A stretch of DNA of 64,000 bases from Gracilariopsis chorda (lineage: Eukaryota > Rhodophyta > Florideophyceae > Gracilariales > Gracilariaceae): NCBI GenBank assembly GCA_003194525.1, contig NBIV01000191.1, forward strand, positions 62,001-126,000, in the 5' to 3' direction. Every line of letters begins with the position of its first letter. Position 1 is the first letter of the stretch. The notes under the pieces are model-generated. The model was not told the DNA's origin, did no database searches, and saw only the letters and a program-made list of their open reading frames with translations. A program made the translations under genes and the position numbers. Below, one piece after another: positions 16,935-64,000 of this stretch.

Positions 16935-17731
16935 TGCAGTGCAATGCCCAGAAGCGGGAGTGCACCGAAAGATGTTCGGGATCTTTCCTCGTTAGAGGTG
17001 AGCCCAGTTGGGTAGAGCCCTCCCAGAAGTGGCACCACTATGTCGGGTTGTAAGGCAAAGGCCACCCGTCACGACTTGCGCAGGGAGGTTGAGGCAAGAG
17101 TCGAGTATCTGCAGGAGCGGTGTGTGGAGGTGGTTCTCCTCTAGAGAAGTGAGGTTTCTACGTTAGTGGCACGCGCGAATACGAGCTGTGGGTAGCTGGA
17201 GAGCCACCCTGTAAAGGGAAAAAAGAAGGGCAGGCTGAGTTATGAGTGTCGTGACGAAGACTAACGGCAGTGCCGGTATATAAACCTTATACAAGGCAAA
17301 CACCAAGACACTTGGAATCATAATCCGAATACTCGGGTCCTGTAGATAGGCAAGCAGTTTAGACTTTCCGTATGCTACGGTCCTTCCCTCCAAGGAGGAG
17401 TAGAGAACACACAAAGGCGGTGAGGTCTAGAGCCCATTCCTCAGGTTGGGGTCCCTTGTTGGGGAAGGTTTACCGGTGCGACGGCAACACGCCGGCGCTA
17501 TAAGTACTAACCATCCCAGAAATGGGTGTGAAAATAATAAATAAAATTAACTAAATAAATCCACTTTGGTGGCTTATGCCCACTACTGTGGCCAACCACC
17601 AATTGACTCTTCCGTGTCCCACGTGTCGAATTCATTATTAGTGGTCATAGGTCATACATTGACTACATTACCGAAACGTTCGGGAAATAAACCAAGTACC
17701 AAGAATCCCTCCCTGAGGGCATTGTACTTCA
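16935..17731 (-). repeat. E1 3' LTR (family G2)
   Basis: On the plus strand the LTR begins TGCAGTGCAATGCC and ends CTTCA, that is, TG...CA. It aligns along its length with 38,306-39,101 and 61,409-62,251; the three copies share the blocks CCCAGTTGGGTA, CTCCAAGGAGGA and CCCAGAAATGGGTGT. Alignment with the other copies stops at the TG on the left and at CA on the right. Confidence 0.85.
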
Positions 17732-17787: not shown

Positions 17788-18386
17788 ATGAGTGATAAAA
17801 GTGCTCGCTGGGTGCCCAGGTCAGACCTCTCCCTAAGAGAAACTACTTTCTGGAAAAGCAGCGAACCAGATTTCCACAAGTGCAAGCTCTTCTTCATCCT
17901 ACTCAAATCAGTCAGATCATGCCCTTTCGAAGTGGAATATGAACAACAACAACAACCAACCTCCAAGTCCGACTCGATTTGGGAGCTTCACAACCGGTTT
18001 CTGGTCGGTACCCCTTTCACAAGGGAGGCGAACTCCGGCACAGCCGCCAAACAATGTCGGAGCGTCCCAGCATCGGTTTCAACTTCTACCAGCGGTGGCT
18101 CCTTTCGTAGTGATCCCGGCGGCGACTTGGTCTTCTCAAAATGCCTTCGTAGGGTTAAATACGAGGAATTGGAGTCACGCCTCTCGGCTCCAGCTTGCGC
18201 CGTGGTTCCATCCCATTGCTGCTCTCAACGAGGATTTGGTTTCGACCTACGCGGATGTTTCCGATAACCTGCCTGGGGATCTATCCAGCCTCTTCACCTC
18301 GATGTGGGACTGGCGGTATCGAATCACCATCCCAGTGCACCATATCCGAAGAAACTCGGGAGCATCCGTGACTGCGGCTCATGCGG
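17788..18386 (+). pseudogene. Antisense accessory gene of E1, N-terminal part
   Basis: This gene lies opposite to gag-pol, just inside the 3' LTR. The ATG at 17,788 starts MSDKSA, matching MGDKSA of the E6 copy, and lies 56 bp from the LTR. A frameshift between about 17,800 and 17,940 moves the reading to a second frame. That frame carries an Asn/Gln/Pro-rich linker, TTGFWSVPL, NWSHASRLQL, APWFHP (about 18,199-18,213), DNLPGDL and WDWRYRI, all shared with E6. Reading ends abruptly in the LTR of E2, which is inserted at a TGCGG target site. The gene resumes at 28,002. The protein family is unknown; no transmembrane segment, signal peptide or enzyme motif is seen. Confidence 0.8.
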
Positions 18387-18900
18387 CGTAGTAGAATACT
18401 ACGTCCGGTGTCCAACCGGAATAGTAGTGTACCAAGGTGCAGTAGCGACAGGGAGCGAGCCATTGGGGTGACAATCCACTGGGTCTACTGGTGACGCATG
18501 CAACAACTGGCGGCGATGTGCAATGGGCGGGTGCTATGTCAAGTCCCTACAGGTTGGGAGAACGGTAGCGATGGCTTAGAGGCCTTTGGTGGTATACTAG
18601 CGGAGTGTGTAGGCAAGAAGACTGCCATGGTGCTTGCCGTTACTCATCGGAGATCGGCTGCTCTCAAGCCATCCTATAGGGTTGACGAGGCGCTCTGACC
18701 TCAGCGCACTATCCTAAAAAATTAACTAAAGTTATCTACCTAATAAAACCTGAGGCCACAGTGCTTTGGCAACTGCACTATCCCTTGATGTCTCCCAGCT
18801 TGACCACGTGGTATATTTCGCCCAGCAGTGCTCTGACCTCTGCCAGCCACACCCCATGGTCACTTCATAATTCCACGTAGCCAATGGTGATTCTCTTACA
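18387..18900 (-). repeat. E2 3' LTR (family G1)
   Basis: It starts CGTAGTAGAATACTACG (the initial TG is mutated to CG) and ends CTCTTACA. It aligns with 27,487-27,996, 32,921-33,439 and 57,929-58,454. The first 34 bases form two adjacent perfect hairpins: CGTAGTA/TACTACG and TCCGGT/ACCGGA. Confidence 0.88.
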
Positions 18901-19661: not shown

Positions 19662-20914
19662 TTGGACAGGCGTAGATTTGTCGCAGTCCCCAACTATGCC
19701 CGCAAGAAGAAGAATTCCCAAGAGGACTCCTGGTACAACCACTGGCTCCATCTTCCGGCCGATGCCCGTTTGCTCGATCTTTGCCGCAATCTGGCCACAC
19801 CAAACATGCCGTTCATACTCTGCAGTGAGGAGTTCGACTACCAATGGAGGATGAACAAGCGTCTAGAGAACTTGTATTCGATGCATGGCGACCCTAAGGC
19901 CCCCTTTCTGCCTCCCCGTCATAACCTTCTCAGATTGGTCTGCGTTAAGCCCCCATACGACCACTTGTACTGTTTATCCAACTAGACCTATTGGAATGAT
20001 ATGATCTAACCTGATGTCTGCATTCGGACAAACTTGAAGTACTTCTTCTGTTGGCACCAAGTACAATTCCATGATATGCCTCCCTCCTGTAGCTCTTCCT
20101 TACATCCCCCTTTACCTTTGCTTGGTTCTGGCCCTGGGCCGCGATATGGCACGTTTCTAATCTCCTTATGCTCCCCACTCCATCCATCTTGGCCTTTCAC
20201 ACTTAACAGCTCCAGGGATTCTTCACTAAGCGTCTACTCTGGTTGACCTGGCAGATTCTTTTCGCCCAATGGACCGTCTTTTGCTGCATGGCCTTCCTGG
20301 ATACTGCTGGCTATGGGCTCCAGGCTAATATCCGGGAGGCCGACCACCGTATCTGGAATGATCGGACGCTCCCTAGCCCTGAAGATCGACTCGTGCCCTT
20401 GCCGTGGCACTTAAACCGGCCCATTCGCGAGTTGGGGGTGCAGAACATCGTCTGGGGTACGGAGTATAAAATGGAAGAAGCCGAGGCCTTATTGGATTAT
20501 GTACTTCGCTTAGAGCCCTCCATTCAACTCTCTTGTTCATCTTTGGTCTCTTTGGTGTCTGTGAGTGCGTCCTACCCATCGTGTTCTACTGGTCGTTACG
20601 CGGAATTCGGGAACCTGCAGGTCTATTCTGAAACACGTCCCTGGGATTTCCTTGCACTTGCTCTATAGGTCAGGCCCCGAGCTTTATTCCCGAAGTTTCC
20701 AGACTCAATGCCCAAGGGAAGTCTGATTTATGTGAACTCCAAGTCGTACATCGTTGCCGTAAACCTTAGGAAGAACCAACATGGACCAAGCGAGTGGGGT
20801 TGCGCCATAGTCGGTTCCGTGAGCGCCGTGGCCAAGAACATTGTTCCTATTGAGTGGAGACGGATTAGGCTCGTGCAAGCGCAAATTTGTGGCCAGGGAC
20901 ATCCCTCTTTTTAA
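19662..20914 (+). pseudogene. Antisense accessory gene of E2 (diverged homologue)
   Basis: This lies in the same position and orientation as the antisense gene of E1, E5 and E6. One frame, 19,662-19,985, contains a W-x-N-H-W-L-H-L-P segment, EEFDYQWRMNKRL and LPPRHNLLRLV, ending at TAG. A second, 20,243-20,668, contains VFCCMAFLDTAGYGL, RPIRELG, EEAEALLDYVLR and YSETRPWDF, ending at TAG. Possible reading continues to 20,914. The order matches E6: RYERRWRSRF, APPHRLGRYVAL, AAIRNLDL, NEEVLQLLEYI, YFEPWEF. The N-terminal half (18,912-19,661) should be present, but I can only see mixed open frames there (18,884-19,675 is the longest). Two stops and a frameshift make it non-functional as read. Confidence 0.65.
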
Positions 20915-22441
20915 GGTCACGCTCCGTGTAGCCTGTTCTAGACCAATAGCGGGCCACGAAATTACTTGGTATTTCTGACATCGGGAGCCACGTATCGTCT
21001 TTTGGCTCGTAGCCATACCAGCAGACTTTGTAACACACTTCGATGTCGTCGGTCAGCCCAGCGGAGACGATGCAGTCAATAACATAGTCTGGTTGGTGGT
21101 CCAATTCGGTGTTCTCAGGTAAGTCCATTTGTTTCAAATGACCGTATCCATCAGGGTTAGAAAGAGCAGCATCACAGGTTCGCGTAGCGATGTCCGTAGG
21201 GTCTGGTACTTCTTCGGGAAGTACCATTTCGTCCAGGGGAGTGTAGCAATTCGAAAAAGAGCCATCAGGATTTGTGGAGACCGGTGGGGCTGCGGGAACG
21301 GTAAGGTCATTGGGTGATGGGTCCATCGGGATTGAGGGCGGGGGTTGGTATGAAGAGGGGAGAGCGGGCACGTCCAATGGTGCAATGTGAGAAGTTGAAG
21401 GGTGGCGCGGCGCAAGAGAGACTCGGTCAATTGTGACTTTTTACTGGAGGCCATCTCAATCGATAGTAACCGTATGCCCAAGGGCTTTGAGTACCTTGAA
21501 TATTACAGTGGATTTTGGCAACAGTTTCTGCGTATTATCCTCGGCCTCGTCCTTTCCTGCGGGGGTCTGTCCAAATGGACGTAATCTCCTACAGCCACTT
21601 GTAATGTAAACCAAATTGACCGATTGAAGTAGGCCTTGTAGCGCGCCTGCGCCTTGTTCAGTGTGGTCTGCCTCGCCTTGAGGATGGAACCAATTCGCTT
21701 ACGAGAATACCGTTTGGTCTGGGCTGGATTCATTTCCTCCGTTATGTACTGAAGGGCTCTCAAGTTCAGTAGGTCGACCATGTACGGCGCGGGGGCCCGT
21801 ACGAGAGTGAGATCAAACGGAGTTGTACCAATGGACTTATGCACTTGATTATCGTATGCATAAACCAGTGGTTGGACATAATCGTCCCAGTCCAATTGGT
21901 ATTCGCAGACGTAGTGAATTAACCTCGTTTTTGAACCTTTCAGCTTGTCTATTGGTCTATAGGTGGTACGCGGTGGTGGGGAGATGTTTCAGACCTAGGG
22001 CTGAGCATACATGGTCAACGAACTCAGAGATAACCTATGAGCCATTGTCCATGAGACGGCAGAAAGGTATTCTGTACGTATAGATCCAGTAGACAAGAAC
22101 TTCCATGGCAACTTCTGTAGCGGTTATTGATTTGAGGGGTATTGCTCGGGTCAAATTGGTGAACCGATCGGTAATCATAAATATAAATCAGTTACCATGA
22201 GTCTACTTCGGGAATGGCCCTAGGATATCCATCGCAATGAACGCCAATGGCCCAGCCGCTGGGAATAACTTCAGATTCCCTTCTTGTAACGCTCTCGTTC
22301 GTCGGATTTTCGCGATTAAGTCAAACGTCCTCGTGGTCTCCATTACATAATTGGCCATCAGGGGCCAGTAAAAATATCTCCTTGGGGTCTGATACATCGG
22401 TGTACCTCCACGATGGCCCGCTAACTTTGCTTAGTGCGTAA
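20865..22441 (-). pseudogene. E2 integrase and chromodomain region
   Basis: On the minus strand the integrase starts with the zinc-binding region (LAGHRGGTPMYQTPRRYFYWPLMANYV), where the expected Cys-x-x-Cys is not visible. The core follows with FIAMDILGPF (first catalytic Asp), a degraded S-D-N-G region near 22,050, and DDYVQPLVYAYDNQVHKSIG. The C-terminal domain has a Lys/Arg-rich helix and VGDYVHLDRPPQERT (about 21,560). A chromodomain-like segment follows at about 21,080-20,900 (VCYKVCWYGYEPKDDTWLP). Such tails direct chromovirus insertion to marked chromatin. Stops and frameshifts break the core. Confidence 0.75.
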
Positions 22442-22744
22442 GATATAGCAGGCGTGCCCGCAATGTCTTGGGGACTACAAGCTGTATCGCCCTATCCAAT
22501 GGTGACCTGCGACATAATGTGCCTCGGCAGTCATAATCAAACAGCGACCCAGGGGTCCTTACCTTCTCCCCTACCTGGACGCAGTATTTGTCCTTTTTTC
22601 AGCCTGAAGGAATTCCTCGAGAGGTATTTGCGTAAGATCTACGCTTCCCGCCTTGGCCATATGGACATCCAGCGGTGGATCGTTCCACTTTGCGGATCAT
22701 AAGATCGCTGTGCCGTGTCCGTCAGTTTCTTCGGCCATTTTGAC

Positions 22745-24344
22745 CTACGCTATTCGCAGTTCCTCTACCTCGTCGTCAGTGTCCTGTGGGCCATCCCAAA
22801 TGGTGCAAATCTCATTTTCCAGCGTACGTTGGTCCGTATGATTGGTCATAAGGCGTGACAGCGCATCTGCGGCCTGATGTTTCAACCCCGGCCTATAGGT
22901 CACTTCATAATCAAATTCGGCCAGCTGCAATCTCCACCGGGCCAGAGGGGAGGATGTGTGCGTCATCTTCATTAGCCTAAAGAGTGAATGGTGATCTTAC
23001 CTAATGGTAAAGCCAGTCCCTTCGAAAAAAGTCGAAGGTGGAGCACCGACCACACAATGGCCGAACACCCCTTTTCTGTAGTGCTATAGTTCCTTTGAAC
23101 CTTGGCCAGGAACCTAGGCCAGTAAATAACTGGGCGATAATCCCTAGACAAATTCTGCTCATGTAGAATAGCACAGCCCACTTGGGTCGCTGATGCGCCC
23201 CTACCTAGTACATAGAGCTTATTGGCCCTGGGTAACGCCAAGACTGGCAGATTGACCAAATGGTCCATGAGGTTCTGGTGCGCCTCATACTGCTCGTCCG
23301 TGAGGTCGTCAATTTCCAAAGGGATCCCATTCTTCAGCGTCTCATTGAGAGATTCTGCGATTTTCGCGAACCCCAGTACAAACCTCCGGTAAACATTACA
23401 CATGCCAAGGAAGGAGCGCAGTTGCTTATGGGTCCTAGGGTGTCGGGCTTTCCCTATAGCCTTAGTTGTAGCTTTTTCCCCTAAAAACCACATGGCCAAC
23501 ATAGCCCACCGAGGGCGGAAAGAAGAAACACTTTTTCAGCTTCAACGTTACGTTTGCCTGTAGGATTAGCCTAAGGACTGCCTTCACGTGTGTGAAGTGT
23601 TTTCTAATGGCCCTGGAAAAGATGATCACATCATCTAAGTAGACCAAGGCGAACTTCCATTTGACCCTGGACAGGATGATGTCTATTGCCCGCTGGAAAG
23701 TAGCTGGCACATTCATGAGACCGAGCACCATCCGTTTAAATCGGAATAAACCCTCGTGGGTCGTAAAGGTGTTTAGTGACTTCGCCTTTTCATCCATGGG
23801 GACTTGCCAGTAGCCACAATTGGCATCCAAGATGGTGAACATTTGCGCGTCCCCAAGGGAATCTAGGCAGTCGTCCATACGGGGGATGGGATACGTATCC
23901 CTTATGTTCACCGCATTTAGTTTGCGGTAGTCAGTACCAAACCCGTACGGCCCCGTCCTTCTTGGCCACTGGGACAAAGTGGCTGGCATATTTGGCCTCC
24001 GTGGATGGTGCACGCTCAATGACACCTGAGGACTTCATCTTCTCCACCCTCTTTGCCACCACCTTTCGTAATTTTACGCCATTGCGATATAGGTGTTGAT
24101 ATTGGGGCGTGGCCCCGTCCTTAAGGTCAGTTTGATGCCTCGTGGCATCGATCTCGCCCAACTTTCCACTCCACATGCCAGCGAAGTCCTTGAGGAGATA
24201 AATGACTTGTTCCCTATAGGGTTCAAAGTCCTCGCCAAGGCTGACGTTGCTTTCCAAGTTGGCCGGGGGGTCGCCCCCGGGAACGAACTTTTCCGCATCA
24301 ATTTCCATACTGGTCCCAGGATCAGGCATAAATATTCCCACCAC
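22745..24344 (-). pseudogene. E2 reverse transcriptase and RNase H
   Basis: Reading leftward, a pre-RT segment (24,344-23,931) includes the RT entry GVIERAPSTEAKYASHFVPV. The RT frame (24,025-23,462) has DYRKLNAVN, FTILDANCGYWQVP (first catalytic Asp), FRFKRMVLGLMNVPATFQRA and the YLDD box in LVYLDDVIIFS (about 23,630). The connection and RNase H follow (23,502-22,972; LGMCNVYRRFV, then YRPVIYWPRFL, NYSTTEKGCSAIVW), ending ADALSR at about 22,840. The YLDD catalytic pair is intact and this is the best-preserved RT in the window. Frame changes separate the blocks, so no single full-length polyprotein remains. Confidence 0.85.
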
Positions 24345-24350
24345 TGCACC

Positions 24351-27484: not shown

Positions 27485-27486
27485 CT

Positions 27487-27996
27487 TTTATTAGAATAAA
27501 AAGTCCGGTGGCGAGCTAGAAGAGTAGTCTACCAAGGGGCAGTAGCGGCAGAGAGCCAGCCACTGGGGTGGCACTCCACTTAGTCTAACACTGAAGTGGG
27601 GACCACCTGGCGGGTAGGCGCAATGGGTGAGCGATATCTCAAAACGTTACAGGTCAGGAGAATGGTAGCGATGGGTTGGAGGCCTTTGGTGGTCTACTAG
27701 CCGGGTGTGTCGGCAAGAAGATGTCGATGGTGCTTGCATTTACTCTTCGAAGATTGGCTCCACTCGATTAAACTTATATGGTTGACGAGGCGCCCTGATC
27801 TCCAGGGACTACCCTAGAAAATTAAACAAAAATTTCTACCTAGTAAAACCTGAGGCCAAAGTACCTTGGCAACTGCACTATCCCTTGGTGTCTCCCTGAC
27901 CACGTTGTATATTTTGCCCAGCAATGTTCTGACCACTGCCAGTCTCACCCCATGCCCATTTTATAATTCCACCTAGCTAACAGTCACTCTCTTATA
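27487..27996 (-). repeat. E2 5' LTR (family G1)
   Basis: It is 510 bp against 514 bp for its partner. The ends are mutated (TTTATTAG at left, CTCTTATA at right), but alignment and the TGCGG duplication on the right fix the borders. Confidence 0.85.
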
Positions 27997-28001
27997 TGCG
28001 G

Positions 28002-29642
28002 GGCTGGTGCAAGTGGCGTACCAACGGCAGAGCCGGGCGCCTTTCGAATTCCCAGTGCCTAACTGCTTTGGCTTCGACATTAGCCTATTCCACACACGCG
28101 GTGAAATCGGTTACGGCAAACGCCTAGCCAGCCTCGAAACCCTCGCGTGGAGGACGTTTCCGGCTGCGGGGCAACAAACCCTGTGTTGGGTTTGTGGGTG
28201 TGGTACAGCCAGTTGTGAGCACAACGTCCGTAAAATAGGACTTTTAGATTTGGTCTAACAGATGGGTTCCAATAGGCAGTGGTCTCGCTAATGTAGGAGA
28301 GGCGACCCAGAGAATCCTGAAAGGAGATCTGCGAGCACCAAGCAGAGAGCGGGTTCACTGGGCGGACGATAATTTTACAGGTGCTGGTATGGGACGCGCT
28401 GGGTATCCGTGGCTTAGAACCCACACCTAGAGGATGACGTAATAGTGTACCTGAAGGTGAGTATCACGAGTGTGAACCAGACGAACTAGAATAGGGGTCG
28501 AGGGTGCTTCCTTTACTTCTCCGAAGGTGGAGCTCCAGCAGCGCACTTTTTACAGTGCCGCGAGCTGACCTCGACAGAACCTATGTACTGTAACCTATAA
28601 AAGTCTAAGGTAGGTTATTGTACGTAATCGATTTACAGTCCGCTGGAACTATTCCTCTGGAGTGGTGTGCTACGTGGCAATAGCTAGAAAATACAGATAC
28701 TGTACTACGAATCTTCCGCAACAGCCCATCCTTAGGAGCATATATAGTACCCTCTGTACTACATTGGGAACGACCGATATTTCGGGCTGAATTCCGGTAC
28801 CTTCCCCGGCAGTCCCAGTTCAACTACCTCCAAAACTTCATCCATTATGGACGGCACTGGCGATCCCGACTCGTGTACTTTGCCCCGTACCAAAAAGTGG
28901 ATATTGAGCGGCTTGCTCCGCCTCACAGACAGAGTCAGTACGTTGCACTCAACGAGTGGTGGAGGTTTCAAGAATCCTGCCAGGTTTGCTACCTTGAGCT
29001 CTCGCTGGCAGTCACGTACCTCGGTTCTTTCCTGATTCCAAATCCCCGGCCAGGACTTTGATCGATAATTGTAACCGAGTGGGCTGCATCGAACCACGTG
29101 TGCGGGTCGCTATTCGCAACCTGGACCTGAGTGTCCCCCTTGGTGGTATTGCCCACAATGACCAAGTACTCCAATTACTTTGCCTTATTGACAGTATTGA
29201 CTATAGCGAGGTCTCGCTGGAACAGATCAGTCGACGTGACGGCGGCGGTGACGGTACCAGTGGTCTGGGTCTTGGTAGAGACACCGCACTTGCGAGGGGT
29301 TTCATCTACTTCGATCTCTGGGAGTTCCAGGAGATTTCCTCGGAAGAGGAACGGGAACTCTGCTACGCCCCGCGGCACGTGCCGGAATACCAATCTATTG
29401 GGTACGTCGAATCGGACGATTACTACTGCGCGTATAGCAGAGATAACCCGATGGTCGATAGCGAACCCGAAGAGCTGCGGGATATGGAACTATATGCTTC
29501 CGACATGGTCGTAGACGAATCCCCGAGGGGCTGCCTCCGGTTCCCAGTACTCCGACGGCGAGTCTCTGGCCTTCACTCTCCAGTGCGGGTACGTTCAATG
29601 AAAACGATTTCATTGATCGCTTCCTACAGGGAGCGGGTTTAA
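28002..29642 (+). pseudogene. Antisense accessory gene of E1, C-terminal part
   Basis: Sequence resumes exactly after E2 and one copy of its TGCGG target: the codons bridging the gap read A-H-A-G-L-V-Q-V-A-Y-Q-R-Q against A-Q-T-A-L-T-R-M-A-Y-Q-R-Q in E6. It continues with RAPFEFPVP, TRGEIGYGK and SLETLAWRTFPAA, breaks at the G4 solo LTR (28,191-28,763), and resumes with EFRYLPRQ, LAPPHRQSQYVAL and LGSFLIPNPRPGL. A TGA follows at 29,059-29,061 where E6 has TGG (Trp). A deletion of about 64 bp then removes some 20 codons and shifts frame. The last frame (IRNLDLSVPLGG, VLQLLCLID, FIYFDLWEF, YVESDDYY) ends at TAA, 29,640-29,642. Function unknown. Confidence 0.82.
28191..28763. mobile_element. Solo LTR of an unassigned family (G4)
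   Basis: A 573-bp insertion interrupts the antisense gene of E1. It is flanked by a 5-bp duplication TTGGG (28,186-28,190 and 28,764-28,768). It ends CTACA and begins TTTGTGG (probably a mutated TGTGTGG), fitting LTR ends. It has no coding capacity and does not resemble the G1, G2 or G3 LTRs by eye. Removing it with one TTGGG restores the codons L-C-W-E-R-P found uninterrupted in E6. Confidence 0.78.
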
Positions 29643-29931
29643 GCGCTACCGAGTTTCGGGTGACGTCACTGCGATGGGGGATGTCTTGGCTTACAGGCTT
29701 GCGGATGGTCACGCTCCGGACGATGGGGAGGAGTCGAACCTGTAATCCAGTATCCTGGTCTCTTTCCCAGGCTTAGACAGTAATATAGCTCAGCATAACA
29801 CAGGATCGCGAGGCTCCTGAGAAAATGTTCCTGTTTAAAACGGCATTCTATCCTTCATTCTCGTCCGTGACGGAGTCCATGCGAAAGGGGGTGTACTACG
29901 TTTTCTTACCTCCCCTGAATTCGCGGCGTTT

Positions 29932-43332: not shown

Positions 43333-43334
43333 AG

Positions 43335-43350
43335 TGATCTCCCGACTTAG
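43335..43350 (+). promoter_or_regulatory. E5 primer-binding site
   Basis: TGATCTCCCGACTTAG lies two bases (AG) after the LTR, as in E2. The expected TGG is mutated to TGA. Confidence 0.65.
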
Positions 43351-46260: not shown

Positions 46261-46551
46261 TAGATACCTGCCACACATGAGGTTACCGATATGAATCCAG
46301 CTTCCACGAAGCTTTGTACTTGCAAGTCTATTGCAATAACGCCGGAGTCCTAAACCTGGGTGTCAGTTGTTACCAAACAACATTGTGTGCACGTGGTTCA
46401 ACCGTTATCATCACTTTAAGATGATCGTCAACTCACTTTAGCGAATAGTTTTGTCTCGTTTGAGCCCTACAAACCTTTTCAGGTCTTGGTTGCTAACTTT
46501 GGCAAAACCACGTAGTGGTTAGTCAATAACCAAGTACCGGATTCAGTTGTT

Positions 46552-50352: not shown

Positions 50353-50661
50353 GTGTCTGAAGTAAACCAGCCCGCGGTACGCGTCATGGAGATAGATAAC
50401 ACTGGAGTGTATTCACTGGAGTTCGTTCTGGAACGCATGGTAAGTTATGAAACTCGTAAGGAATTACTGCGTTACCTCATAAAATGGGATGGATACCCAC
50501 CCAAAGAGGATACATTGGAACCCATAGGGCACCTCTTAAAGTCTAATATCATATCTTATCACCGTAGGAACGGGTCAGCTCTCGTATCCACTTTGGATAA
50601 CGCGCACGTTGGATGCCCCTCCACGGTGAGATCGCACGGAACGTGGATGGGACCGCAATGA
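50353..50661 (+). pseudogene. E5 chromodomain
   Basis: The frame reads EFVLERMVSYETRKELLRYLIKWDGYPPKEDTLEPIGHL, a well-preserved chromodomain: Y-L-I-K-W-x-G-Y is intact, while the usual T-W-E-P is T-L-E-P. It is the C-terminal end of the polyprotein. Upstream, 49,139-50,340 is a Pro/Ser-rich tether followed by an unassigned frame (49,702-49,965). Downstream the opposite-strand gene begins to converge. Confidence 0.85.
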
Positions 50662-50933
50662 AGATAGCGGAGGTACTCGAGGAGAGTAAGAAGTTGAGAA
50701 CTCTGATAGGGGTAAAGGTTCCAGGACCATTTCCTTTACTTACAGAACTAACAGTTTCACCAAATTGACGGTTTATGAAGACAAGCATCATGTATATGAA
50801 GTACACGAAGAAGAAGTGTGAAGAAGAATATCGAGAAGTTCGAGAAGCAAGAAAAAGAAGTATGAAGTTAACACAGGGTGTTTATTCTGTGTTCAGAAGA
50901 TCTATTACTAGGTGATTAGGTACTGCGAGGTTG

Positions 50934-52735
50934 TTACACTCTCGATGGGGGACCGGCACCACCCTGGCTTGACGCCCTTGGCGTATGTTGCGCAGCAAAA
51001 GCTAGCAGTTGACCCACGTCATTCGTACCAGGCGGATCTGGGATAACTAGGGTCAACAGGTTCGCTCGCAAAGCTGCCACTTCTGCAGATATCGCAAATG
51101 GCAGTGGAGAACTCTGCTGAGTTCCCAGATTCCAACTGGGAGGTGCTGTGTATCCTGTACCGGATGATTCGGCTACGCCACTAGCCGAGGGGTTCACATC
51201 TGCCATGGCGTCGGCGCCGCCACGGTCGTTTGCTTCATCATCCAACATCGGATCCTCTACGTCAACCAGAGCTTGTTAATCATCACTGAATACAAACCCT
51301 GTAGGGTGACCCTCGCTAATCACGCGAGGAGCATTGCTTATAAATAGCACTGGAGTGCGTGACGTCTTGCACCCTTCCCATGGGTCGTAATAGATGAAGT
51401 TACCCGCTTCTTGGTGACAAAGACCGAGTGAATGGTCATGTGGAGATTTCGTACCCTTCGCGCGATCACCTTATGGCAGGGTGTTCTGACTCGTCTGGTA
51501 CATCACATCCAGGATGTAGTACACTTCAGCAACGTTCTCTTCGGAACCAAGAACCGTGTGGAGACTCAGTGCTCTCATAACCTGTCGCAGGTATGGAGGG
51601 AGAAACGAAACTCTACAGTGGTCGTACGCCTCCCAGAGGTTGAATACCGGAACGCAGGCCGCTCATTCAGCGAGTATTAGGGACCAGTACCCGGACCTCG
51701 GATTCAGGAGCATCCGTGAAGCGATGTATGTTAAGCACGGAGGAAGTACCGGAAAACACCCGTTGGGTACTTTGACACGAGACCAACAACTTGGTAAGGG
51801 CACGAAGCGATCGTCAAAAGACTGTGGCAGATATCGCTCTGTTTTGATGTTCACGTAAAGAATCAGGTAATCATGACGGGATCGCACTTTCCTTTCGAAT
51901 CGGATGTAACTCATGAACCTGTCGAGTACCACGGCTTGCCGTATATACCTGAGCCCCGCACGCAGTAACGGTAGTGTCTAACACATCATATTGGCTTCGA
52001 TACGAAAGAGACTCCTGTTGAAATCTGCCGGATCGACCGTGGCGAGTCTGTCTCCGTAGGACATCTCACCGTACGTTCGGTACCTTGTAACATCGAACCC
52101 ATAGCGAGCGGGTACTGGTTTCGTGTTCCATGCATGGTTCAACCGTTCGTACGCAAGTATCTTCATCTTTTTGTGAGCCTTTTCAAGGGTTTCACCTCTG
52201 TGGTCATTAATCCGTTACAAATTTGGATCAATCGCAACGTGACATACACAATCGAGGGACTTGACGATTTAGATAAGCAGCCCACCGGGTAAAATACTGT
52301 GCGTAAGGTATGACCCAATCAACGCATGGTTTTGAACCGCTTCGGGGTGAAACCACGGTGCCCATGAAAAGAGGAAACGATCCCATAGAGGATGAAAAAC
52401 GCGGAGCATTTCCTTAGAGACCCAACCAGCAGCATTTGTAGTAGCCAGACGATGCTGAGATGCATTCCACGCAACTTCCAGTGGATCTAAGGTGGGACCC
52501 ATCGCGGATTGTGGCAGAGGTGCCGTAGAAAACCCACACAGTTGGGGTGCACTTGACGGAGGAGGTTAGGAACGACCAGCGGAGCTGGCAGAACCCCGAA
52601 GATGGTTGGATGCATAACCAGTGAGCATTGTTTGAGGAGTCGGAATGTGATACTCAAAAGTATTGCTAGACGCTTCAGACATCGAGTGTGAATCCCCTTG
52701 TTTGCGAGGAAGTGGAACATTGAAAGAACTCACTG
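50934..52735 (-). pseudogene. Antisense accessory gene of E5
   Basis: On the minus strand, starting near the 3' LTR: a Pro/Ser-rich N-terminal part broken across frames (52,720-52,490), then a frame (52,502-52,269) with DRFLFSWAPWFHPEAVQNH and ILPGGLL. After stops, the frame 52,166-51,978 has AYERLNHAWNTKPVP and YRTYGEMSYGDRLA. E6 has APWFHPVAVLNE, LPGDL, AYQRQSRAPFDVPVP and FPTRGEIGYGD in the same order. A middle region (51,970-51,250) is too decayed to follow. The C-terminal frame (51,248-50,934) opens with DDEAND and is Ala/Ser/Pro-rich, like the acidic then Ala/Pro-rich tail of E6. Dead copy; function unknown. Confidence 0.75.
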
Positions 52736-52801
52736 TGTGTAAATTATTTGAACATTTCGCCGCCTGGGGCTTCCGCTGAGTAGACGCGGAAACCCTTGGC
52801 T

Positions 52802-52814
52802 AAAGAGGGGGAGA
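52802..52814 (+). promoter_or_regulatory. E5 polypurine tract
   Basis: AAAGAGGGGGAGA directly abuts the 3' LTR. Confidence 0.85.
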
Positions 52815-53727
52815 TTTGGAGCAATGAGAATGCGTAATATCCGCGCGCATGGGACTCATAAGAGTACGAGGTGGTCACTGCATTGGCTCTACCGTTATAT
52901 TTTTGTACTCCGGAGGAGTGGTACAATTTGGATTGGTTTAATGTGTATGGATTAACCTAGAAAGATATACAACTTGACCTGATATGAACTTGGATGGAGG
53001 CGTATGCACGTTTACTACCCCACCATGCTGTGATGTCATATTTAGTTGTGGTTGACCCCTCGGGGTTCCTGACACTTGAGTAGCCACGTGTGTGGACCTC
53101 ATGAGGTTTGCACTATTTTAGTTATTTTCTACAATTTATTTCTGTAGTTTACATACTTAAGTGACCGCGATATCGCCTTCACAAGCGCTAAGGAAAGTCA
53201 ACCAGAGTCTTCGGTTACACATAAGTGTTCAGTTTGACCTGAAGAATCCGGCTCTGGGTTTTATTGCCTTTTCAGCGTGTACAACTCCATCTGGAGGGTC
53301 CTCGCAATCTGTTTGTACGATCTACCCCCTCGGTACGGCTACAGATATAGTGTGTTCACTAATTGTAGTGTGACTTCTATTTTCTCTGTGTTACGGATAT
53401 AGACCCTGTATTTGGTATTCTTTTGTTGTTTCTTGTTGCTTTTGCACCCACCGTCGGGTCTGTTCCGGCTGTCCGCACGACCCGTCGGGTGGTTCCGTTC
53501 TGTCTTTGGATAGCCCCCTTTTTTGGGTTGGTACTGGTCCACCGTACGCGTGTTACGACGTTTCCCGGGTTTACCGTTCCTCTCTATCTCCGTCGTATTT
53601 CCGAAATACTGTCGCTCTTACACCCGACACCTGGATAGACGGAGGGCTCAACCGCTAAGTTTACCTCGCAAGAGGGAAGGGACTCGGACATCTTTGAGTG
53701 TCACCCATTTCCAGGTTTTGAACTACA
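52815..53727 (+). repeat. E5 3' LTR (family G3)
   Basis: It starts TTTGGAGCAATGAG (TG mutated to TT) and ends TTTTGAACTACA, followed by AAGAC. Confidence 0.92.
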
Positions 53728-53732
53728 AAGAC

Positions 53733-55138
53733 CTTGAAAAGATGATCACACCATCTAAGGTAAACAAGGTCAGCTTTTACTTGACCCTAGACAAAATGAT
53801 ATCTATGGCCCACTAGAAAAGTAGATGGCGCATTCATGAGATCGAACCGCCTCTGTATATATCAGGAAAGCTCCTAGTGGGTCGTGAAAGTAGTCAGCAA
53901 CTTCGCCTTGTTGTTCATAGGTACTTGCCAATAGGCAAAATTGGCATCGAACGTGGTCAAAGTTTGGGCGTACCCAAGGGAGTCTAGAAATTCGTCCATA
54001 TGCATGATACGATAAATATACGTCTTCGTTGCCGCATCAGGCTAGCGGTAACCAGTACAAAAGCAAAAGGTACAATCTGTCCTAGCCAGAAGCACAAAAC
54101 GCTCGTCCGTTCGGTTTCCGTGGATTGTGCACGCTGAATGACACCTGCAGACTTCACGTTCTCAATCTTTTTGGGTACTGCTTCGCGTTGTTTTAACCCT
54201 TTATGATACAGAGGTGGTTATTGGGTGGTGGCCCCGCCTGTAAGGTCAATTCGATGCTTTGTGACATCAATATCGACCAGTTTCTCACTTCAAATGCCAG
54301 CAAACGCATTGAGGATGTCAATGAAGTGGTTACTATAGGACCCAAAATAATCGCCAAGATTATTGTCATCTTCCAGATTTGCCAGTGGTTGAACCCCAGG
54401 AAGGTGCTCTTCTGCACCAGTTTTCATAATAGCCACATAAGCAGGCATAGATATCACTACCACTACGCCCTTTTTTAACCTTGTAGGCTTGTCACGGAAG
54501 TTGCTCATCGGGACCGCAAATGGGCGATTGAGTACCGCAGTCATGCCTCCATTGGCCAGAGTGCATAAGTGTTTCGGCGACCTGGGTCATAAGCGGTATG
54601 ATTATCTCCTTTCCCACTCTAACCTTGTTCTACACGGTACTCGTGGGAATCGTGACCTTAACTGGGACATCATCAAGTCCCAGGTACCACCCGATAATCG
54701 CCAATAGTGCTCCTCGATGGTAGGTCACCCTCTTTTGGCCAGGATGGATTGCTTCTACATATTTATCTATAATGCTACTTAGCATTCCTTCTGCCCTAAC
54801 GTTTGGGCAAACAAGAAGCCAATTCCTAACCCTCAGGGGACCCAATTGCACATAGAGCAGAAGTATGCTGCGAATGTCCATTGACCAAGATGATGTGTAC
54901 GCTACCTTCGATAACTTCTGTTCCTGTGCCTTCCTTCCCAGAGCAATGGGAAGAACTTCGGATGTATCAGGTTGGGGCGTGCCCTCGTATCGAACATGGC
55001 AATAAATCTTCTTGTGTCGTTCGAATGCAGTCCTAATGTTCCGCGTACTTTATAATTGTTTTTTCTCAGAACACAAACAGCGTTCTCCAGATATTTCCAT
55101 TGATGCACAGCATACCCTAGACTCAAGACCTGTGTCAT
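53733..55138 (-). pseudogene. E4 protease and RT N-terminal remnants
   Basis: On the minus strand, 55,138-54,902 contains FIAMFDTRARPNLIHPKFFPL, the protease active-site block with Asp-Thr-Gly changed to Asp-Thr-Arg. The frame 54,881-54,630 has IIDKYVEAIHPGQKRVTYHRG, matching FVDRYLKAIYPGRKRVVFYRG of E2. RT remnants follow (54,180-53,740), including a region whose plus strand still aligns base by base with E2 (AAAAGATGATCACA, the LDD-box region). RT is cut at 53,732/42,412 by E5. Confidence 0.75.
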
Positions 55139-55494
55139 CTTGTCCTTTGGTTTCTTTTCTTTTGCCAGTTTTGCGGTTTCTTGGTTAGAAGCGGCAGTTC
55201 TGAAAGGAATGAAACTCCTCTATGTGCCCCTTTGGTCATTGTTCTGCGGCTTAGGCACCATATAATCACCTTGTCTCTCCAGAAATTGGACGTTGTCCTT
55301 TGGGTCGTTCACGATATTGACCTGTGTTAGCTTTGCCGTTGTGGTCAGGTGAATCATATACTTAGAGCTCTTTGACGTTCTAGTGGTGTTTGGAGAAAGG
55401 TTCTACGGAAGTAACCCTCGGCCTAGCGCACCTGATAATTCACCTCTCTTTGTGCCATAATTCCCTTGCGGATGTCCTCGGGCATATATTTTAT

Positions 55495-57800
55495 TCAGTC
55501 ACACAGCTGTGACGTAGAAAGGCAAATATAACAGCGCTGATTGGACTTCGTAATGACGTCCTTTCTAAGGGCAAGCAAAGAATAGCGTGGTGCCAATGGG
55601 GTCGTCTTTTGTGAGAAAAAGGCTGATGGTGCTTCTGACGAAGCTGAGCGGTAGCTCACGGTAAGAACGTCTGTGTTGTCTGAATTTCCAAAGGCCGAGT
55701 ACGACTCAAATAGAGATTTCAACACTTGGGCCTTAGCTCCTTCAATAAGAGGCCTTGCGCAACCCCTGGTATATGCATGACCCGTCTGAAAGGAAGTCCT
55801 ATAGGTAATGACATATCCTTTGCATACATCACCAGCGAGGCAGCGTCAGGTTCGGGTGGGCAGAGTGGTGATTTAAGACATGGGTACGTATCGCTCGGAG
55901 TAACTCTGCGATAAAATGCCGCTGAAGCCCTCACTCAGCGAAAACATTCCTGCACCGGCGGGCTCTATTCCTGAGTTGTTCGGCGTAATCCGTTTCGGAT
56001 ATGGTGGAACTCTGGTGATATCCAATACGTCCTGGTAGCATTCAGTAGGTAGTCGTCAGTCGCATACGTTTCTAACCGGTGATGAACAACCTTGGGTACA
56101 TCATTGGAAGCTGTAGATGCCAGGTATCGATGGAATTGGCCAAGCCAAAGGGCTTGGCGACCACTTGGTACTTCGTTCTCCCACTCAGAAAAGACTGAAA
56201 GCAGTAAAACCCAGTGGAAATATGATATATGAGTTGGATATGAATCTGATGAGTTTAACGTGGAACTGAAAAAGTTGAGATGTAAATCAGATATCTTCTG
56301 GGTATATTCTTGGGTAAAAAGCTATACTTTTGCGACTCTCACATAATATGTGGATATATATTTGATATACTCCAGAAGTAGGTTGCAAAAGTTCCCGATA
56401 CCGGGGACTTCAAAATACATCGGACATATATCAGAAGCTATCGTAATACCCTCTGTGCATAATCAATGAAATATCGTAAACAAATTCAGTTAATACCAAA
56501 AAAGAACCAAGTTTTCTTATTACGCTATCTTTACTGCATCAAACCTTTATATTTCTCTTACAAACTTTATGTCCTCATGAGATATCATTTCTACATCAAT
56601 AGCATATCGTCGATTTTCACTGAGAAGCACTGTTCCGCCATGGATTCCATTCTTTTCACGGACCACTTGGAATGAGCTCGAAAACCTTAGAGCTGTAATG
56701 GGATTCTTCCCAGAGAACTTGTCCGGAACGGTCAGTTGCATTCTCTTCGACCAAGGGGAAATCTTTTTGGCCACTGAAAAGGTGCACCGCGTGAAGTGGT
56801 CCATGACGCTGCAAGTTTTGAGGTCTAAGACTTTCTGGAAAAGCGCATTAGCGGTGAACAATGGTTTGAGGCGCCGAAAATTCCTCTTATTCGTATAGTT
56901 CTCGGACGAGACCGACGATTCTGAATTTTCATCGCTCCATTTTGCATGGTCCCTCTTTCAATGGTTTGTCTTAGCCTTACCCCTTTGGCTTCGTGTTTTC
57001 TTCCTAAGGGTCTCGATACATGCGGAATCGTTTTGAGCAAGCTCTTCATCGTCCTCGACGTACTCGTTGGCGTACCGAACGCCGTTCTGTCGCTTGATCT
57101 TATCTTACAGGCGCCCTATATACCTCTGAAGTCCTCTGCTCCTCGCAATATATAATAAAATGTGTATTCTGATGTACCCAGGCGCGGGGGTACCTCTGTA
57201 GCTGCTCCCTGAGGTTTAGTGTGTGGTGATTGAAGAACTTTCAATGGATAACTTTGAGAAACCGCCTGAGGGCTGTGAAATAATCCTGGTTGACAGGTGA
57301 TTTCTCCACAGATGGTCGTGGCATCTGACTCCAAGAGGGTATCTGATTGTAAAATCTGAGGAACGACTAGTTGGATTTCCAGAAAAGAGAAGCGCTTCCG
57401 TATAACTCATCCAGTTGGTCCGTGAAGAATTGCTCTACGTGTTTCTCGCACCAATAGCATAGTTGCGATCATAAGAGAGTGGCGACTTCTTTCGAAAAAC
57501 GTAGGGTGAGTGCGGTAGCAGTGAAGTCCTGTGACCGTTCTGCATCATTCCTCGGGCCGTGCAGAAGGTTGAGCTGATCCATAGTGTCGCAAGGTGAGCA
57601 ACCATTAAATCTCGAGATATCCTTCCAATCCTGTTCAAATGGTCTATGAAACGTCCACCAGAGCGGCTGCGGGTACTGTTACAGTCACTATTATTGTCCT
57701 TTTCGATGGCCACTAGGATAGCGGCGACTGCAGGAGGTGTGGCTGCACCCGGAGTTCTTTGTTCGTCTTCGTTCTTTAGGTTTGGTTGTTGTTTGTCCAT
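55495..57800 (-). pseudogene. E4 gag, interrupted by an inverted-repeat element
   Basis: N-terminal block 57,800-57,435 (CNSTRSRSGGRFIDHLNRIGRI) matches E2. Capsid block 56,861-56,640 (KRMQLTVPDKFSGKNPITALRFSSSFQVV) is cut at 56,622 by the inverted-repeat element; homology to E2 resumes on its other side near 56,200. The C-terminal Cys cluster (55,725-55,495, C-Y-I-C-L-S-T-S-Q-L-C) corresponds to that of E2. All parts are frame-broken. Confidence 0.72.
56212..56622. repeat. Inverted-repeat element copy 2 (MITE-like)
   Basis: It has clean ends, CAGTGGAAAT at left and ATTTTCACTG at right, inverted at 9 of 10 positions. It is homologous to 40,131-40,539 along its length and lies inside the E4 capsid region, which is continuous in E2. 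It does not code. Confidence 0.7.
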
Positions 57801-57910
57801 TTGATAAGCGTTGCTTTCGAGCCAGTTTTGTGGAAGAAAAGGACAATAGTAGAAACCCTATGCAGTATAAGTATTTCTTTAGCATCTAAAACCGCTGTTT
57901 TTTTAGGGTT

Positions 57911-57926
57911 CTAGGTTGGGAGACCA
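57911..57926 (-). promoter_or_regulatory. E4 primer-binding site
   Basis: On the minus strand this reads TGGTCTCCCAACCTAG, two bases after the 5' LTR; it is the best-preserved site of the four. Confidence 0.7.
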
Positions 57927-57928
57927 GT

Positions 57929-58454
57929 TGGGGCAGAATACCAGGTCCTTTGGCTAGGTAGGGTAGTAGTTTACTAGGCGCTAGCAGCGACTGAGAGCCA
58001 TCCTTTACGGTGACTACTTAATTTGTCTACTTGTGACGGGGGCACCAAATGGCAGCAAGACGCACTGGGGGTGCTATATGAAGTTCTTACAGTTCTGGAG
58101 GATAGTAACAATGGTGTCGAAGCCTTTGGGACTCTACTGGAAGCATATGGAGGCACAAAGACGGCGAAGGTGTTTGTCTTTACTGTTTCGAGTTCGGCGT
58201 CACTCCAGCCAAACCATATTGATTACAAGGCGCTCTGATCTCCGACAACTATCCTCAAAAAAATAAATGAAATTATCTACATAGTATTAACCTATGGCCA
58301 CAGTGCCATGGCACTCGCACTGTCCCCTGTTATCTTCTTCATCGGCATCCCGCTTGGAAACGTGTAGTACTTCGGTCAGCAATGCTCTACCCTCTGCCAG
58401 CCCAGACCCATGGTTACTTCACCACTGCAACTAACCATTGATCAATTTCCCACA
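57929..58454 (-). repeat. E4 5' LTR (family G1)
   Basis: A 526-bp copy begins TGGGGCAGAATACC and ends TTTCCCACA. It aligns with the E2 LTRs and the solo LTR (shared blocks GGCGCTCTGA, GGCCACAGTGCC). Its partner LTR is missing. Confidence 0.82.
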
Positions 58455-61408: not shown

Positions 61409-62251
61409 TGTGGTGCAATGCCCCAAAAGGGAAGAACACCGAAAGACGGTCGGGATCTTCCTCTCACGAGGTAAACCCAGTTGGGTAGAGCCCTCCCAGA
61501 GGTGTCACGGCGAAGCCGGTTTGTAAAACCAGGGACACCTGTCGCGACTTGCGCAGGGAGCTGAAGGCGAAGAATTGGTATCCACATGAGCGGGGTGTGG
61601 TCCTCAGTAGAGGTACGTTTCCACGTAAGTGGGGATGTGTGAGCAGGTGCACACAGAAGGGCCGCGGGTAGCGGGATGTACTACCCTGAAAGGGGGAAAG
61701 GAGGAGAGTGAAGGGAAAGGAGGAAGAGTGGGCGAGGGTGAGTCGCGAGAGCGAAGAACATATACGGCAATGCCGGTGGACAGGACTCCCTATACAGGTT
61801 GAAACACCAATGTGATTGGAACAAATATACTCCCAAGGATGGGTCTCTTTAGGTGTGCAAGGGGGTTAGAGGTCCCGTGGTTTACGGCGTTTCTCTCCAA
61901 GGAGGAGGTAGGAATGCGCGGAAGCGGCAACAACTAGAGCCAACTCTCCAGGTTCAGGGTCCCTTGTTGGGGAAGCTTTACTGGTGCAACGGCAGTGCGC
62001 CGTCGCACTAAGTACTAGCTTCCCAGAAATGGGTGTAAAAATAATAAAAACAATTAACTAAAATTATTGGAAATACTCCACATTTCGTGTTAACATCCAC
62101 TACTGTGGCCAACCGCCAGTTGGCCTAAAAACGTATCTCACGTGTCCATATCCACCATAGTGGGGCGTAATTCATATACACACTACACAACCGATAATAT
62201 CGGGAAAACGATCAAGTACCAAGAATCCCTCCCTGAGGGCGTTACACTTCA
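61409..62251 (-). repeat. E6 3' LTR (family G2)
   Basis: It begins TGTGGTGCAATGCC and ends ACACTTCA; at 843 bp it is about 46 bp longer than the E1 copies. It aligns with both E1 LTRs. Confidence 0.85.
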
Positions 62252-62270
62252 TATCCCCCCCTAAGACGGG
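62252..62270 (-). promoter_or_regulatory. E6 polypurine tract
   Basis: On the minus strand the tract ends TTAGGGGGGGATA immediately before the LTR start TGAAG. Confidence 0.75.
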
Positions 62271-62306: not shown

Positions 62307-63950
62307 ATGGGTGATAAAAGCGCGTGCTCTGTCTCCGGTTCTCTGGTAAATCCCTCTGCACCAGAGTCATTGAGCACACAAACAACAACAACAGCCACCC
62401 TCGACAAGGGAGAAATGAACGACGACAATAACATAAACAACCACAGCCAACCTCCGAGGCCTCTCGGGCGATACACCACCGGTTTCTGGTCAGTTCCCCT
62501 GCCTCAGGGCGATCGACATCCGGTTCAACCGGGAAATATGGATGCTGCAGCCGACCATCCCTTCGCACTCCCACCTTCGGTGGTGTCCTCCGGAGCCACT
62601 CCGGTGTACAACTGGCCATCCTACAACACCCTGGTGGGGCTCAACCCAATGAATCGGAATCACGCGTCGCGCCTGCGCCTTGCTCCGTGGTTCCACCCGG
62701 TCGCTGTCCTCAATGAGGGATTGGTCACCGCTTATGCGGATGGCTCAGACACCCTTCCGGGGGATCTGCCCAGACCAGTCACCACATCGTGGGATTGGCG
62801 TCACCGGATTGCGATTCCGCGTCATTACCTCCGAAATAATTCGGGCGAGACCGTCGCTGCGGCGCAGACCGCGTTGACGCGCATGGCGTACCAACGGCAG
62901 AGCCGGGCTCCATTCGATGTACCGGTCCCACCGGAGTTTGGCTCCGACGTTAGCTACTTCCCCACTCGCGGGGAGATTGGGTACGGCGACAACCTGTTCC
63001 GCCTCGAGACCCTCACTTGAAGGAATTTCCCCGCAGCGCGGCAAGAAGCCCTCTGTTGGGAGCGACTGATTATTTGGGCAGAGTTCAGGTACCTTCCCCG
63101 GCAATACCGGTCCAACTTTCTCCAAAACGTCATCCGCTACGAGCGGCGTTGGCGATCCCGATTCGGGTATTTCATCCCTTATCAGAACGTGGGGATAGAG
63201 CGGATTGCGCCGCCTCACCGACTAGGTCGGTATGTAGCACTCCCCGAGTGCTGGCGCTTCCATGAAGCCTGCCGGGGGTGCTACATAGAACTCCCGCCGG
63301 TACTTACGTTCCTCGGTTCGCTGCTCATGCAGGATCCCCGGTCGGGGTTGTGGTCCGTAGTGGTTACGGAGTGGGCGGCCCGCACTGCGGCTTATATCCT
63401 CAACGAGGCGTACGATCAGTATCGTCTCTGGTTCCTTCAACCGCGTGTGCGGGCAGCGATCCGAAACCTGGATCTTCGCATCCCCCTTGGGGGCCAGGCC
63501 AACAATGAAGAGGTCCTCCAATTACTTGAATACATCGACAGCGTTAGCTGGAGTGAGGTCCCGCTGGAGCAAAGCGGTCGTCTGGATGGCGGCAGCGGTA
63601 ACACCGGTGGTCCGGGACTCGGTAAAAACACCGCCCTTGCGGGGGATTTTATCTACTTCGAGCCCTGGGAGTTCCGGGAAATTTCCTCCGAGGAGGCGCA
63701 CGAGCTTCGCGATGCGCCCCGGCATGTGCCGGAAGACCACCCAGTGGGGTACGTCGATTCTGACGACTACTACCACGCATATGGCGGGGATGACCCAATG
63801 GTCGATAACGAACCGGAAGAACCTGGGGAGATGGACGTAGAGAAAACCAGCGCTAGCGCGGAAGCTTTCCCAGAGGGGGTATCTCCGGCCGAGCCGGCTG
63901 CTGACCCTTCGGCGGCAAGTGCCGGACCTTCTATCCCCAGCGGGGTGTAG
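62307..63950 (+). pseudogene. Antisense accessory gene of E6, nearly intact (one in-frame TGA)
   Basis: This is the reference copy of the unknown family. The ATG is at 62,307, 55 bp from the LTR, and the frame runs 547 codons to TAG, with a single TGA at 63,018-63,020 where E1 has TGG (Trp). Layout by residue: 1-70 Ser/Thr/Asn-rich; 70-200 conserved core with TTGFWSVPL, NHASRLRLAPWFHP (about 62,660-62,698) and SWDWRHRIAIP; about 200-240 AYQRQSRAPFDVPVP and TRGEIGYGD; 240-420 WERLIIWAEFRYLPRQ, IRYERRWRSRFGYF, IAPPHRLGRYVALPE, VVVTEWAARTAAYIL and RAAIRNLDLRIPLGG; then NNEEVLQLLEYID, FIYFEPWEFREISSEEA and YVDSDDYYHAY; and an acidic, then Ala/Pro-rich tail. Trp, Arg and Pro are frequent. No zinc finger, signal peptide, transmembrane helix or catalytic motif is seen. 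It lies opposite to gag-pol, so it would need antisense transcription, probably from the LTR. Confidence 0.85.
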
Positions 63951-64000
63951 GCGATTGAAAACGAGATCATCGCACGTTTTCTCCGGGGTGCCGGTCTGAG

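What the first reader, a model, noticed from the sequence alone, without database searches (positions are those of the whole stretch)
62307..63950. A conserved gene on the antisense strand of Ty3/gypsy elements, between chromodomain and 3' LTR
Seen: all four elements with a preserved 3' region (E1 17,788-29,642 with insertions; E2 19,662-20,914; E5 52,735-50,934; E6 62,307-63,950) carry a protein-like frame opposite to gag-pol at the same place. The proteins share ordered motifs (APWFHP; RGE(I/M)xYGD; (L/A)PPxxxxxRxV; IRxL...(L/A)LL(E/D)Y(I/V); Y...PWxF) although E1/E6, E2 and E5 have unrelated LTRs. Known: antisense ORFs are reported for some plant Ty3/gypsy elements, and env-like ORFs also occur in this interval, but on the sense strand. 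Inference: this is an old accessory gene of a chromovirus lineage. It may control sense-strand expression, the particle or silencing. I do not recognise the family.
Basis: partly seen in the sequence, partly recalled or inferred. Interest (0 to 1): 0.88.

Follow-up and report, generated by a model that had tools for sequence, protein, structure and literature searches.

The report
Antisense gene in red-algal retrotransposons
Several families of jumping elements in a red-algal genome carry a third gene, written on the opposite strand from the usual ones, that encodes a protein unlike any described family found here and has been kept working by selection; its job is unknown but it is probably an accessory factor of the element.

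Summary
In Ty3/gypsy elements of a genome matching Gracilariopsis chorda, a frame antisense to gag-pol lies between chromodomain and 3' LTR. The window copies are broken (E6 by two stops), but 57 of the 74 best-scoring E6-type copies have no stop. The gene starts 54-57 bp inside the LTR and ends about 190-196 bp before the chromodomain end, in 29 of 29 copies examined. It is under protein-level selection: dN/dS 0.29 within the family, 0.25-0.30 between families A, B and C. E1 and E5 are clear homologues; E2 is a remote one (profile score 97.6, decoys at most 47.5). Other families carry it intact. No Pfam or PDB match; no transmembrane segment. Named relatives are Gracilariaceae only. Antisense genes at this place are known in plant Retand/Grande elements (TRP28) and fungal Boty, so the layout is known; the protein family and red-algal chromodomain setting appear new. 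Best mechanism: an accessory protein made from an antisense mRNA starting at the 3' LTR, acting on the element's expression or nuclear steps. The gene is shown; the function is inferred, without RNA or structure data.

The parts
62307..64000 (+). E6 antisense frame (aORF), family A; broken here by TGA 63018-63020 and TAG 63948-63950; continues past the window to about 64091 by comparison with other copies
61409..62252 (-). E6 3' LTR (5' LTR lies outside the window, window-coordinate 71990-72813; 89% identical over 824 aligned bases)
62252..62262 (-). E6 polypurine tract abutting the 3' LTR
   Evidence: read directly
17969..18370 (+). E1 antisense frame, first piece (residues 50-183 of the family A protein)
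27980..29733 (+). E1 antisense frame, later pieces, resumed after the nested E2 element; frameshifted
16935..17731 (-). E1 3' LTR (partner 38306-39102, 84%)
19662..20914 (+). E2 antisense frame, decayed; remote homologue of E6 by profile
18389..18898 (-). E2 3' LTR (partner 27489-27994, 78%); E2 is inserted in E1's antisense gene
20868..24034 (-). E2 pol pieces: Chromo (20868-21440, below Pfam cut-off), RNase H (22975-23535), RT (23465-24034)
50934..52735 (-). E5 antisense frame; 6 stops in the 1329-nt matched part
52817..53728 (+). E5 3' LTR (partner 42419-43333, 86%)

Best explanation
The frame is a true protein-coding accessory gene of a lineage of chromodomain-bearing Ty3/gypsy retrotransposons in gracilariacean red algae. 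The element has genes on both strands: gag-pol reads inward from the 5' LTR, and the antisense gene reads inward from the 3' LTR, tail to tail and without overlap. Shown: place, strand, coding selection, conservation across families, PPT and target-duplication orientation. Inferred: a promoter in or beside the 3' LTR makes an antisense mRNA that ends in the short gap before pol (family A has AATAAA there); the soluble protein of about 600-700 aa (Arg-rich conserved core of about 400 aa, variable linker, short C-terminal helix motif or coiled coil) acts in trans as a nuclear accessory factor on the element's expression, silencing or pre-integration complex. Because the antisense mRNA would not need the 5' LTR promoter, it could be made from silenced or 5'-truncated copies.
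For: Copies without stops: 57 of 74 scored family A rows; 10 of 11 E2-type rows at 48-49% identity; 49 of 59 rows at 42-46% identity and 6 of 6 rows at 97-99% identity to P0006. Layout: LTR 54-57 bp before the ATG and an antisense chromodomain about 190-196 bp after the stop in 29 of 29 copies; an opposite-strand chromodomain beside the gene in three further families, L060, L064 and L065. Selection: dN/dS 0.288 over 406 pairs; variants shared by 5 or more copies 8 nonsynonymous to 20 synonymous, by 2-4 copies 18 to 19, singletons 134 to 80; between families 0.25-0.30 for A, B and C and 0.27 for L060-L062; the core is more constrained than the ends. AATAAA at about +90 in 27 of 29 family A copies. 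No transmembrane stretch (hydropathy maximum below 1.6 in 13 of 13). NLS-like C-terminus in L060, L062 and P0005; Arg over-represented among conserved columns (11 of 53, one-sided p 0.011). Precedent: the Grande antisense protein is nuclear and its region is transcribed antisense (PMC7264820, passages read).
Against: No RNA, promoter or structure data. NLS-like motifs are absent from 10 of 13 proteins, family A included. AATAAA was not found in the stretches held for families B, C (208 nt only) and D, nor in L062 (180 nt only), L064 or the E6 copy. One pair within family B gives dN/dS 0.69; L045 of that pair ends out of frame, which raises it. E5-type and most E2-type copies are decayed: none of five E5-type loci read had a full frame (longest 348 aa), and only 22 of 91 rows have no stop. 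Family B has no clear chromodomain. Nothing in the sequence tells regulation from particle or integration roles. One search lists only the best-scoring 74 of 1939 candidates, so the intact share is biased upward.
Confidence: 0.55

Rival explanations
1. The protein is an anti-silencing factor: expressed from the antisense promoter, it counters small-RNA or chromatin silencing of the family, as some transposon-encoded anti-silencing proteins do (recalled).
For: Kept in several multicopy families. Expression from the 3' LTR would not depend on the silenced 5' LTR (inference). Lysine-poor: family A has 2 Lys where base composition predicts 13.4, which could slow ubiquitin-dependent turnover (speculation).
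Against: No similarity to a known silencing suppressor appeared in Pfam. The lysine shortage is weaker in B and C (4 against 9.5, 6 against 11.7) and absent from the E2-type protein (15 against 12.2).
Confidence: 0.2
2. The protein is a particle or replication component (packaging, integrase partner, movement), with antisense expression serving only to set its dose or timing.
For: It seems inherited with pol: RT and antisense-protein identities rank nearly alike in the few pairs compared. About 600-700 aa with a conserved core could be structural.
Against: An antisense mRNA is not the genomic RNA, so the usual gag-pol dosage link is absent; no capsid, protease or nucleic-acid enzyme domain was recognised.
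Confidence: 0.17
3. The antisense RNA itself is the functional product (dsRNA control of gag-pol) and the frame is incidental.
For: Antisense RNA roles are proposed for other elements (PMC7264820, passages read).
Against: dN/dS is 0.29 in this frame; four other frames give 1.2-1.7 and the one other low frame (0.375) has 18-21 stops and shares its third codon positions. The gene and, in family A, its AATAAA stop short of pol, so a terminated transcript would not cover gag-pol.
Confidence: 0.04
4. Captured host gene, or chance frame hitch-hiking in a young family.
For: Family A copies are still about 95% alike, so they spread recently.
Against: Homology runs between families at 21-62% protein identity with dS of 1 or more; the 29 family A copies examined lie in the same element layout; no named relative outside Gracilariaceae in three protein searches, each limited to 8000 candidates.
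Confidence: 0.04

Closest known systems
Antisense aORFs (aORF-3R) of plant Retand-lineage and related Ty3/gypsy elements: Grande gene23, RIRE2, Retand, TRP28 domain PF04195 (PMC11963269 abstract and passages; PMC7264820 passages)
   Same: A protein gene antisense to gag-pol, between pol and the 3' LTR, kept in most copies and across related families; function unknown, nuclear or regulatory role suspected.
   Different: Retand elements are non-chromovirus and TRP28 is described only from flowering plants. Here the elements bear a chromodomain, the host is a red alga, and none of the 14 proteins scanned matches PF04195.
Fungal Boty element with an antisense ORF (seen only as named in PMC7264820)
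   Same: Non-plant LTR element with an antisense ORF between pol and the 3' LTR.
   Different: Sequence relation to this family not tested.
HTLV-1 HBZ and related antisense retroviral proteins (PMC10186651, passages read)
   Same: Encoded antisense and expressed from a promoter in the 3' LTR. This is an analogy for how the red-algal gene may work.
   Different: No homology claimed; promoter and bZIP nature not shown here. Only the E2-type proteins end in a coiled-coil-like basic stretch (my reading).
Env-like ORFs of plant LTR elements (PMC7264820, passages)
   Same: Same interval between pol and the 3' LTR.
   Different: Env-like ORFs are sense-strand and some have transmembrane segments; this is antisense and shows none.

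Membership tests
Ty3/gypsy LTR retrotransposon | LTR pair with target-site duplication and PPT | tested here: met
   LTR pairs in three elements, TSDs in E6 and C10 (none seen for C163), PPT in all three
Ty3/gypsy LTR retrotransposon | pol order RT-RNaseH-integrase | tested here: inconclusive
   RT, RNase H, Chromo in order in E2; in E6 RT-like sequence lies before a weak, below-cut-off integrase match; fits, but no single element showed all domains above cut-off
Chromovirus (strict) | Chromodomain at the pol C-terminus | tested here: met
   PF00385 in E6 (3.5e-10), L060 (7.7e-11) and E2 (1e-4, below cut-off); similar domains in L064 and L065; family B unclear
Chromovirus (strict) | RT groups with chromoviruses in a tree | not tested
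   No reference RT set was used; chromodomain Gypsy elements outside chromoviruses exist in Ectocarpus (PMC12477816, passages read)
Retand-type antisense aORF (TRP28) | Antisense protein gene between pol and 3' LTR | tested here: met
Retand-type antisense aORF (TRP28) | TRP28 domain PF04195 | tested here: not met
   No PF04195 match in 14 distinct proteins at E up to 5 or 10 (HMMER filters drop most matches above 0.1); fold comparison was not possible
Env-like ORF | Sense strand and transmembrane segment | tested here: not met
   Antisense; hydropathy maximum below 1.6 in 13 of 13
HBZ-like antisense regulator | Transcript from the 3' LTR antisense promoter | not testable with these tools
   No RNA data

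The most novel reading that the evidence does not exclude
An undescribed protein family, old enough to have split into lineages of about 20-30% identity, is the third gene of two-strand (ambisense) red-algal Ty3/gypsy elements. It evolved independently of TRP28 in plants and HBZ in retroviruses as a trans-acting factor made from the 3' LTR, so antisense accessory genes would have arisen repeatedly at this same place in LTR elements.
Probability: 0.4. Interest if true: 0.72.

Novelty: new variant of a known kind. Interest (0 to 1): 0.58.

Why it matters
Antisense genes between pol and the 3' LTR are known mainly from flowering plants and have no assigned function. A second, apparently unrelated protein family at the same place in red-algal chromodomain elements, with many intact copies and clear codon-level selection, suggests that the position itself is favoured and gives an independent system in which the role of such genes can be tested.

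Tried and rejected
Pfam scans of single members and of an alignment gave nothing above threshold (best DUF6220 E 0.093). PDB by sequence and profile gave nothing convincing (best E 1.9 and 0.39). Viral-contig scans with P0005, P0006 and P0009 and a genome-contig scan (bacteria and archaea) with P0001 found no relatives; one search found no usable pattern. Chance frame, antisense-RNA-only function and env-like identity were considered and rejected on the grounds given. A SAP-like look of the C-terminal helix-GL-helix motif is a recalled resemblance that Pfam did not support. Pol 3' dN/dS (0.61 over the 148 of 406 pairs that had equal length and at least 85% identity) was not used as a contrast because frameshifted copies fall in or out of that set. 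A chromodomain for family B rests on a weak 13-residue match at the expected place and strand (E 0.006); the translation around it shows no clear domain. The stronger chromodomain hit in L048 (4084-4278) lies on the far side of the antisense gene and is taken to belong to another element (not checked further). Of the 30 loci L015-L044, L032 was dropped because its first codon no longer reads Met. Of 11 loci fetched, L056 and L057 gave no full frame and L049-L053 only broken ones.

Full report
What was checked. The reported frame (62307-63950, +) exists but is not open: it holds a TGA at 63018-63020, and 63950 is the end of a second stop. The same region occurs in many copies at 95-96% identity in the window's genome (40 scored of 634 candidates), and a typical copy has one open frame of 595 aa from its ATG. 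A protein search of the genome scored 74 of 1939 candidates; 57 of these 74 have no stop. They are the best-scoring ones, so this share is an upper estimate; E6 itself is not among them.

Host. The second protein-database hit, P0002, is named BWQ96_03215 of Gracilariopsis chorda, and residues 1-491 of its 617 match the window's genome at 100%. G. chorda is a florideophyte red alga. Named relatives are only Gracilariaceae (G. chorda P0002, P0006, P0007; Gracilaria domingensis P0003); five more have no name. Each search scored only the 8000 candidates sharing most words, so a wider spread is not excluded.

Anatomy. In the E6, C10 and C163 elements the LTR pairs, the PPT next to the LTR beside the frame and a PBS-like TGG stretch next to the other LTR (recognised from memory; no tRNA matched) put gag-pol on the opposite strand; E6 and C10 have target-site duplications, while none was seen for C163. 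LTR pairs are 96% (C10), 93% (C163) and 89% (E6) identical, gaps left out. A gag-type zinc knuckle lies in front of pol. In 29 of 29 family A copies the LTR ends 54-57 bp before the ATG and the antisense chromodomain ends about 190-196 bp after the stop. The two genes are therefore tail to tail and do not overlap. An AATAAA lies about 90 bases after the stop in 27 of 29 copies. It is present at +33 in the E2-type L060 and near the end of E5, and absent from the stretches held of families B, C and D, L062, L064 and the E6 copy. It is supportive for some families only.

Coding. Among 29 family A copies, dN/dS over 406 pairs is 0.288; variants shared by at least five copies are 8 nonsynonymous to 20 synonymous, those in 2-4 copies 18 to 19, while singletons, which include decay after insertion, are 134 to 80 plus 4 stops. 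Four of the other five frames give 1.2-1.7; the fifth gives 0.375 because its third positions face those of the gene, and it holds 18-21 stops per copy. Between families A, B and C dN/dS is 0.25-0.30 over five pairs, with dS of 1.0-1.4 and thus imprecise; L060-L062 gives 0.27. The one pair within family B gives 0.69, in part because L045 ends out of frame. Constraint is highest in the central part. Stops occur in 3 of 29 antisense frames and 10 of 29 pol 3' fragments.

Family. E1 and E5 are homologues by direct search. E2 was missed by direct search and weakly found with a first alignment (78%). With a better E2-type alignment (L060, L062, L059, L058, L061) the profile comparison gives 97.4% probability, E 1.3e-11, score 97.6 over 201 columns, against 15.7 and 17.7 for reversed profiles, at most 26.5 for 60 column shuffles and at most 47.5 for 60 block shuffles. 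The genome holds further families: B with six copies at 93-100%, an E2-type set with mostly 738-aa frames (10 of 11 rows at 48-49% identity without stops), the P0006 family (6 of 6 rows at 97-99% without stops) and a set at 42-46% identity to P0006 (49 of 59 rows without stops). Other E2-type copies are mostly broken (22 of all 91 rows have no stop), and so are the five E5-type loci read. An opposite-strand chromodomain next to the gene was seen in L060, L064 and L065, not clearly in family B. Where RT could be compared, family A to E5 is about 60%, A to E2 57%, A to the E2-type L063 61% (71 aa only), E2 to E5 about 48%, E2 to L063 70% and A to the E1-side copy at 34133-34609 75%. Antisense proteins rank much the same way (A to E1 45-66%, A to E5 35%, A to E2-type 21-32%, L060 to L062 45%). 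This fits inheritance with pol, but the pairs are few, short and partly decayed.

Protein. No Pfam family (14 proteins) and no solved structure matches. No transmembrane stretch was seen in 13 of 13 proteins; NLS-like motifs lie at the C-terminus of three (P0005, L060, L062) and are absent from ten. Arg makes 11 of 53 conserved columns (one-sided p 0.011). Layout read from the alignment: a variable N-terminus, a core of about 400 aa, an acidic or Pro-rich linker and a short C-terminal helix motif; E2-type proteins add a coiled-coil-like basic end (my reading, not computed). The structure tool was off.

How it may work. The ATG lies just inside the LTR, so an antisense transcript would start in or near the 3' LTR; this is the described arrangement of retroviral antisense genes (PMC10186651, passages). 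The antisense region of maize Grande is transcribed from a promoter upstream of it, and its protein is nuclear (PMC7264820, passages). From this I infer a nuclear accessory protein acting on the element's expression or nuclear steps. Anti-silencing and particle roles are the main rivals. None was tested.

Known or new. Antisense genes between pol and the 3' LTR are described for plant Retand elements, 97% of whose clusters carry TRP28 (PMC11963269, abstract and passages), and for fungal Boty (named in PMC7264820). Searches for this in red algae, in Gracilaria/Gracilariopsis or in chromoviruses listed no paper whose title or abstract start describes it (of the listed papers only passages of PMC12477816, PMC3605345 and PMC11963269 were read). 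The library holds open-licence papers only, so this is a limited negative. I rate it a new variant of a known kind: known layout, apparently new protein family and setting.

Noticed in passing
L016:1501-3285 and P0002: The antisense protein is almost free of lysine in family A and P0002 (2 of 595 and 1 of 617 residues) while pol pieces of a family A element have 2.6-5.9%; base composition predicts 13.4 in family A. The E2-type protein does not share this.
   Followed up: partly
window 18389-27994: E2 is inserted inside the antisense gene of E1: E1 residues 183 and 182 flank it.
   Followed up: partly
window 40126-42302 and 53732-58335: Another E2-type element appears to be split by the E5 insertion (42419-53728); its antisense-gene region was not looked for.
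   Followed up: no
window-coordinate 70573-72813 and 79757-82000 (L009, L010): A 2.2-kb inverted repeat (94%) follows E6: a second element end of the same family in the opposite orientation; the fetched stretch ends there.
   Followed up: no
G. chorda gene models BWQ96_03215 and BWQ96_10156 (P0002, P0006): Antisense genes of these elements are annotated as hypothetical proteins; both match genome copies in two blocks, so the models may contain predicted introns.
   Followed up: partly
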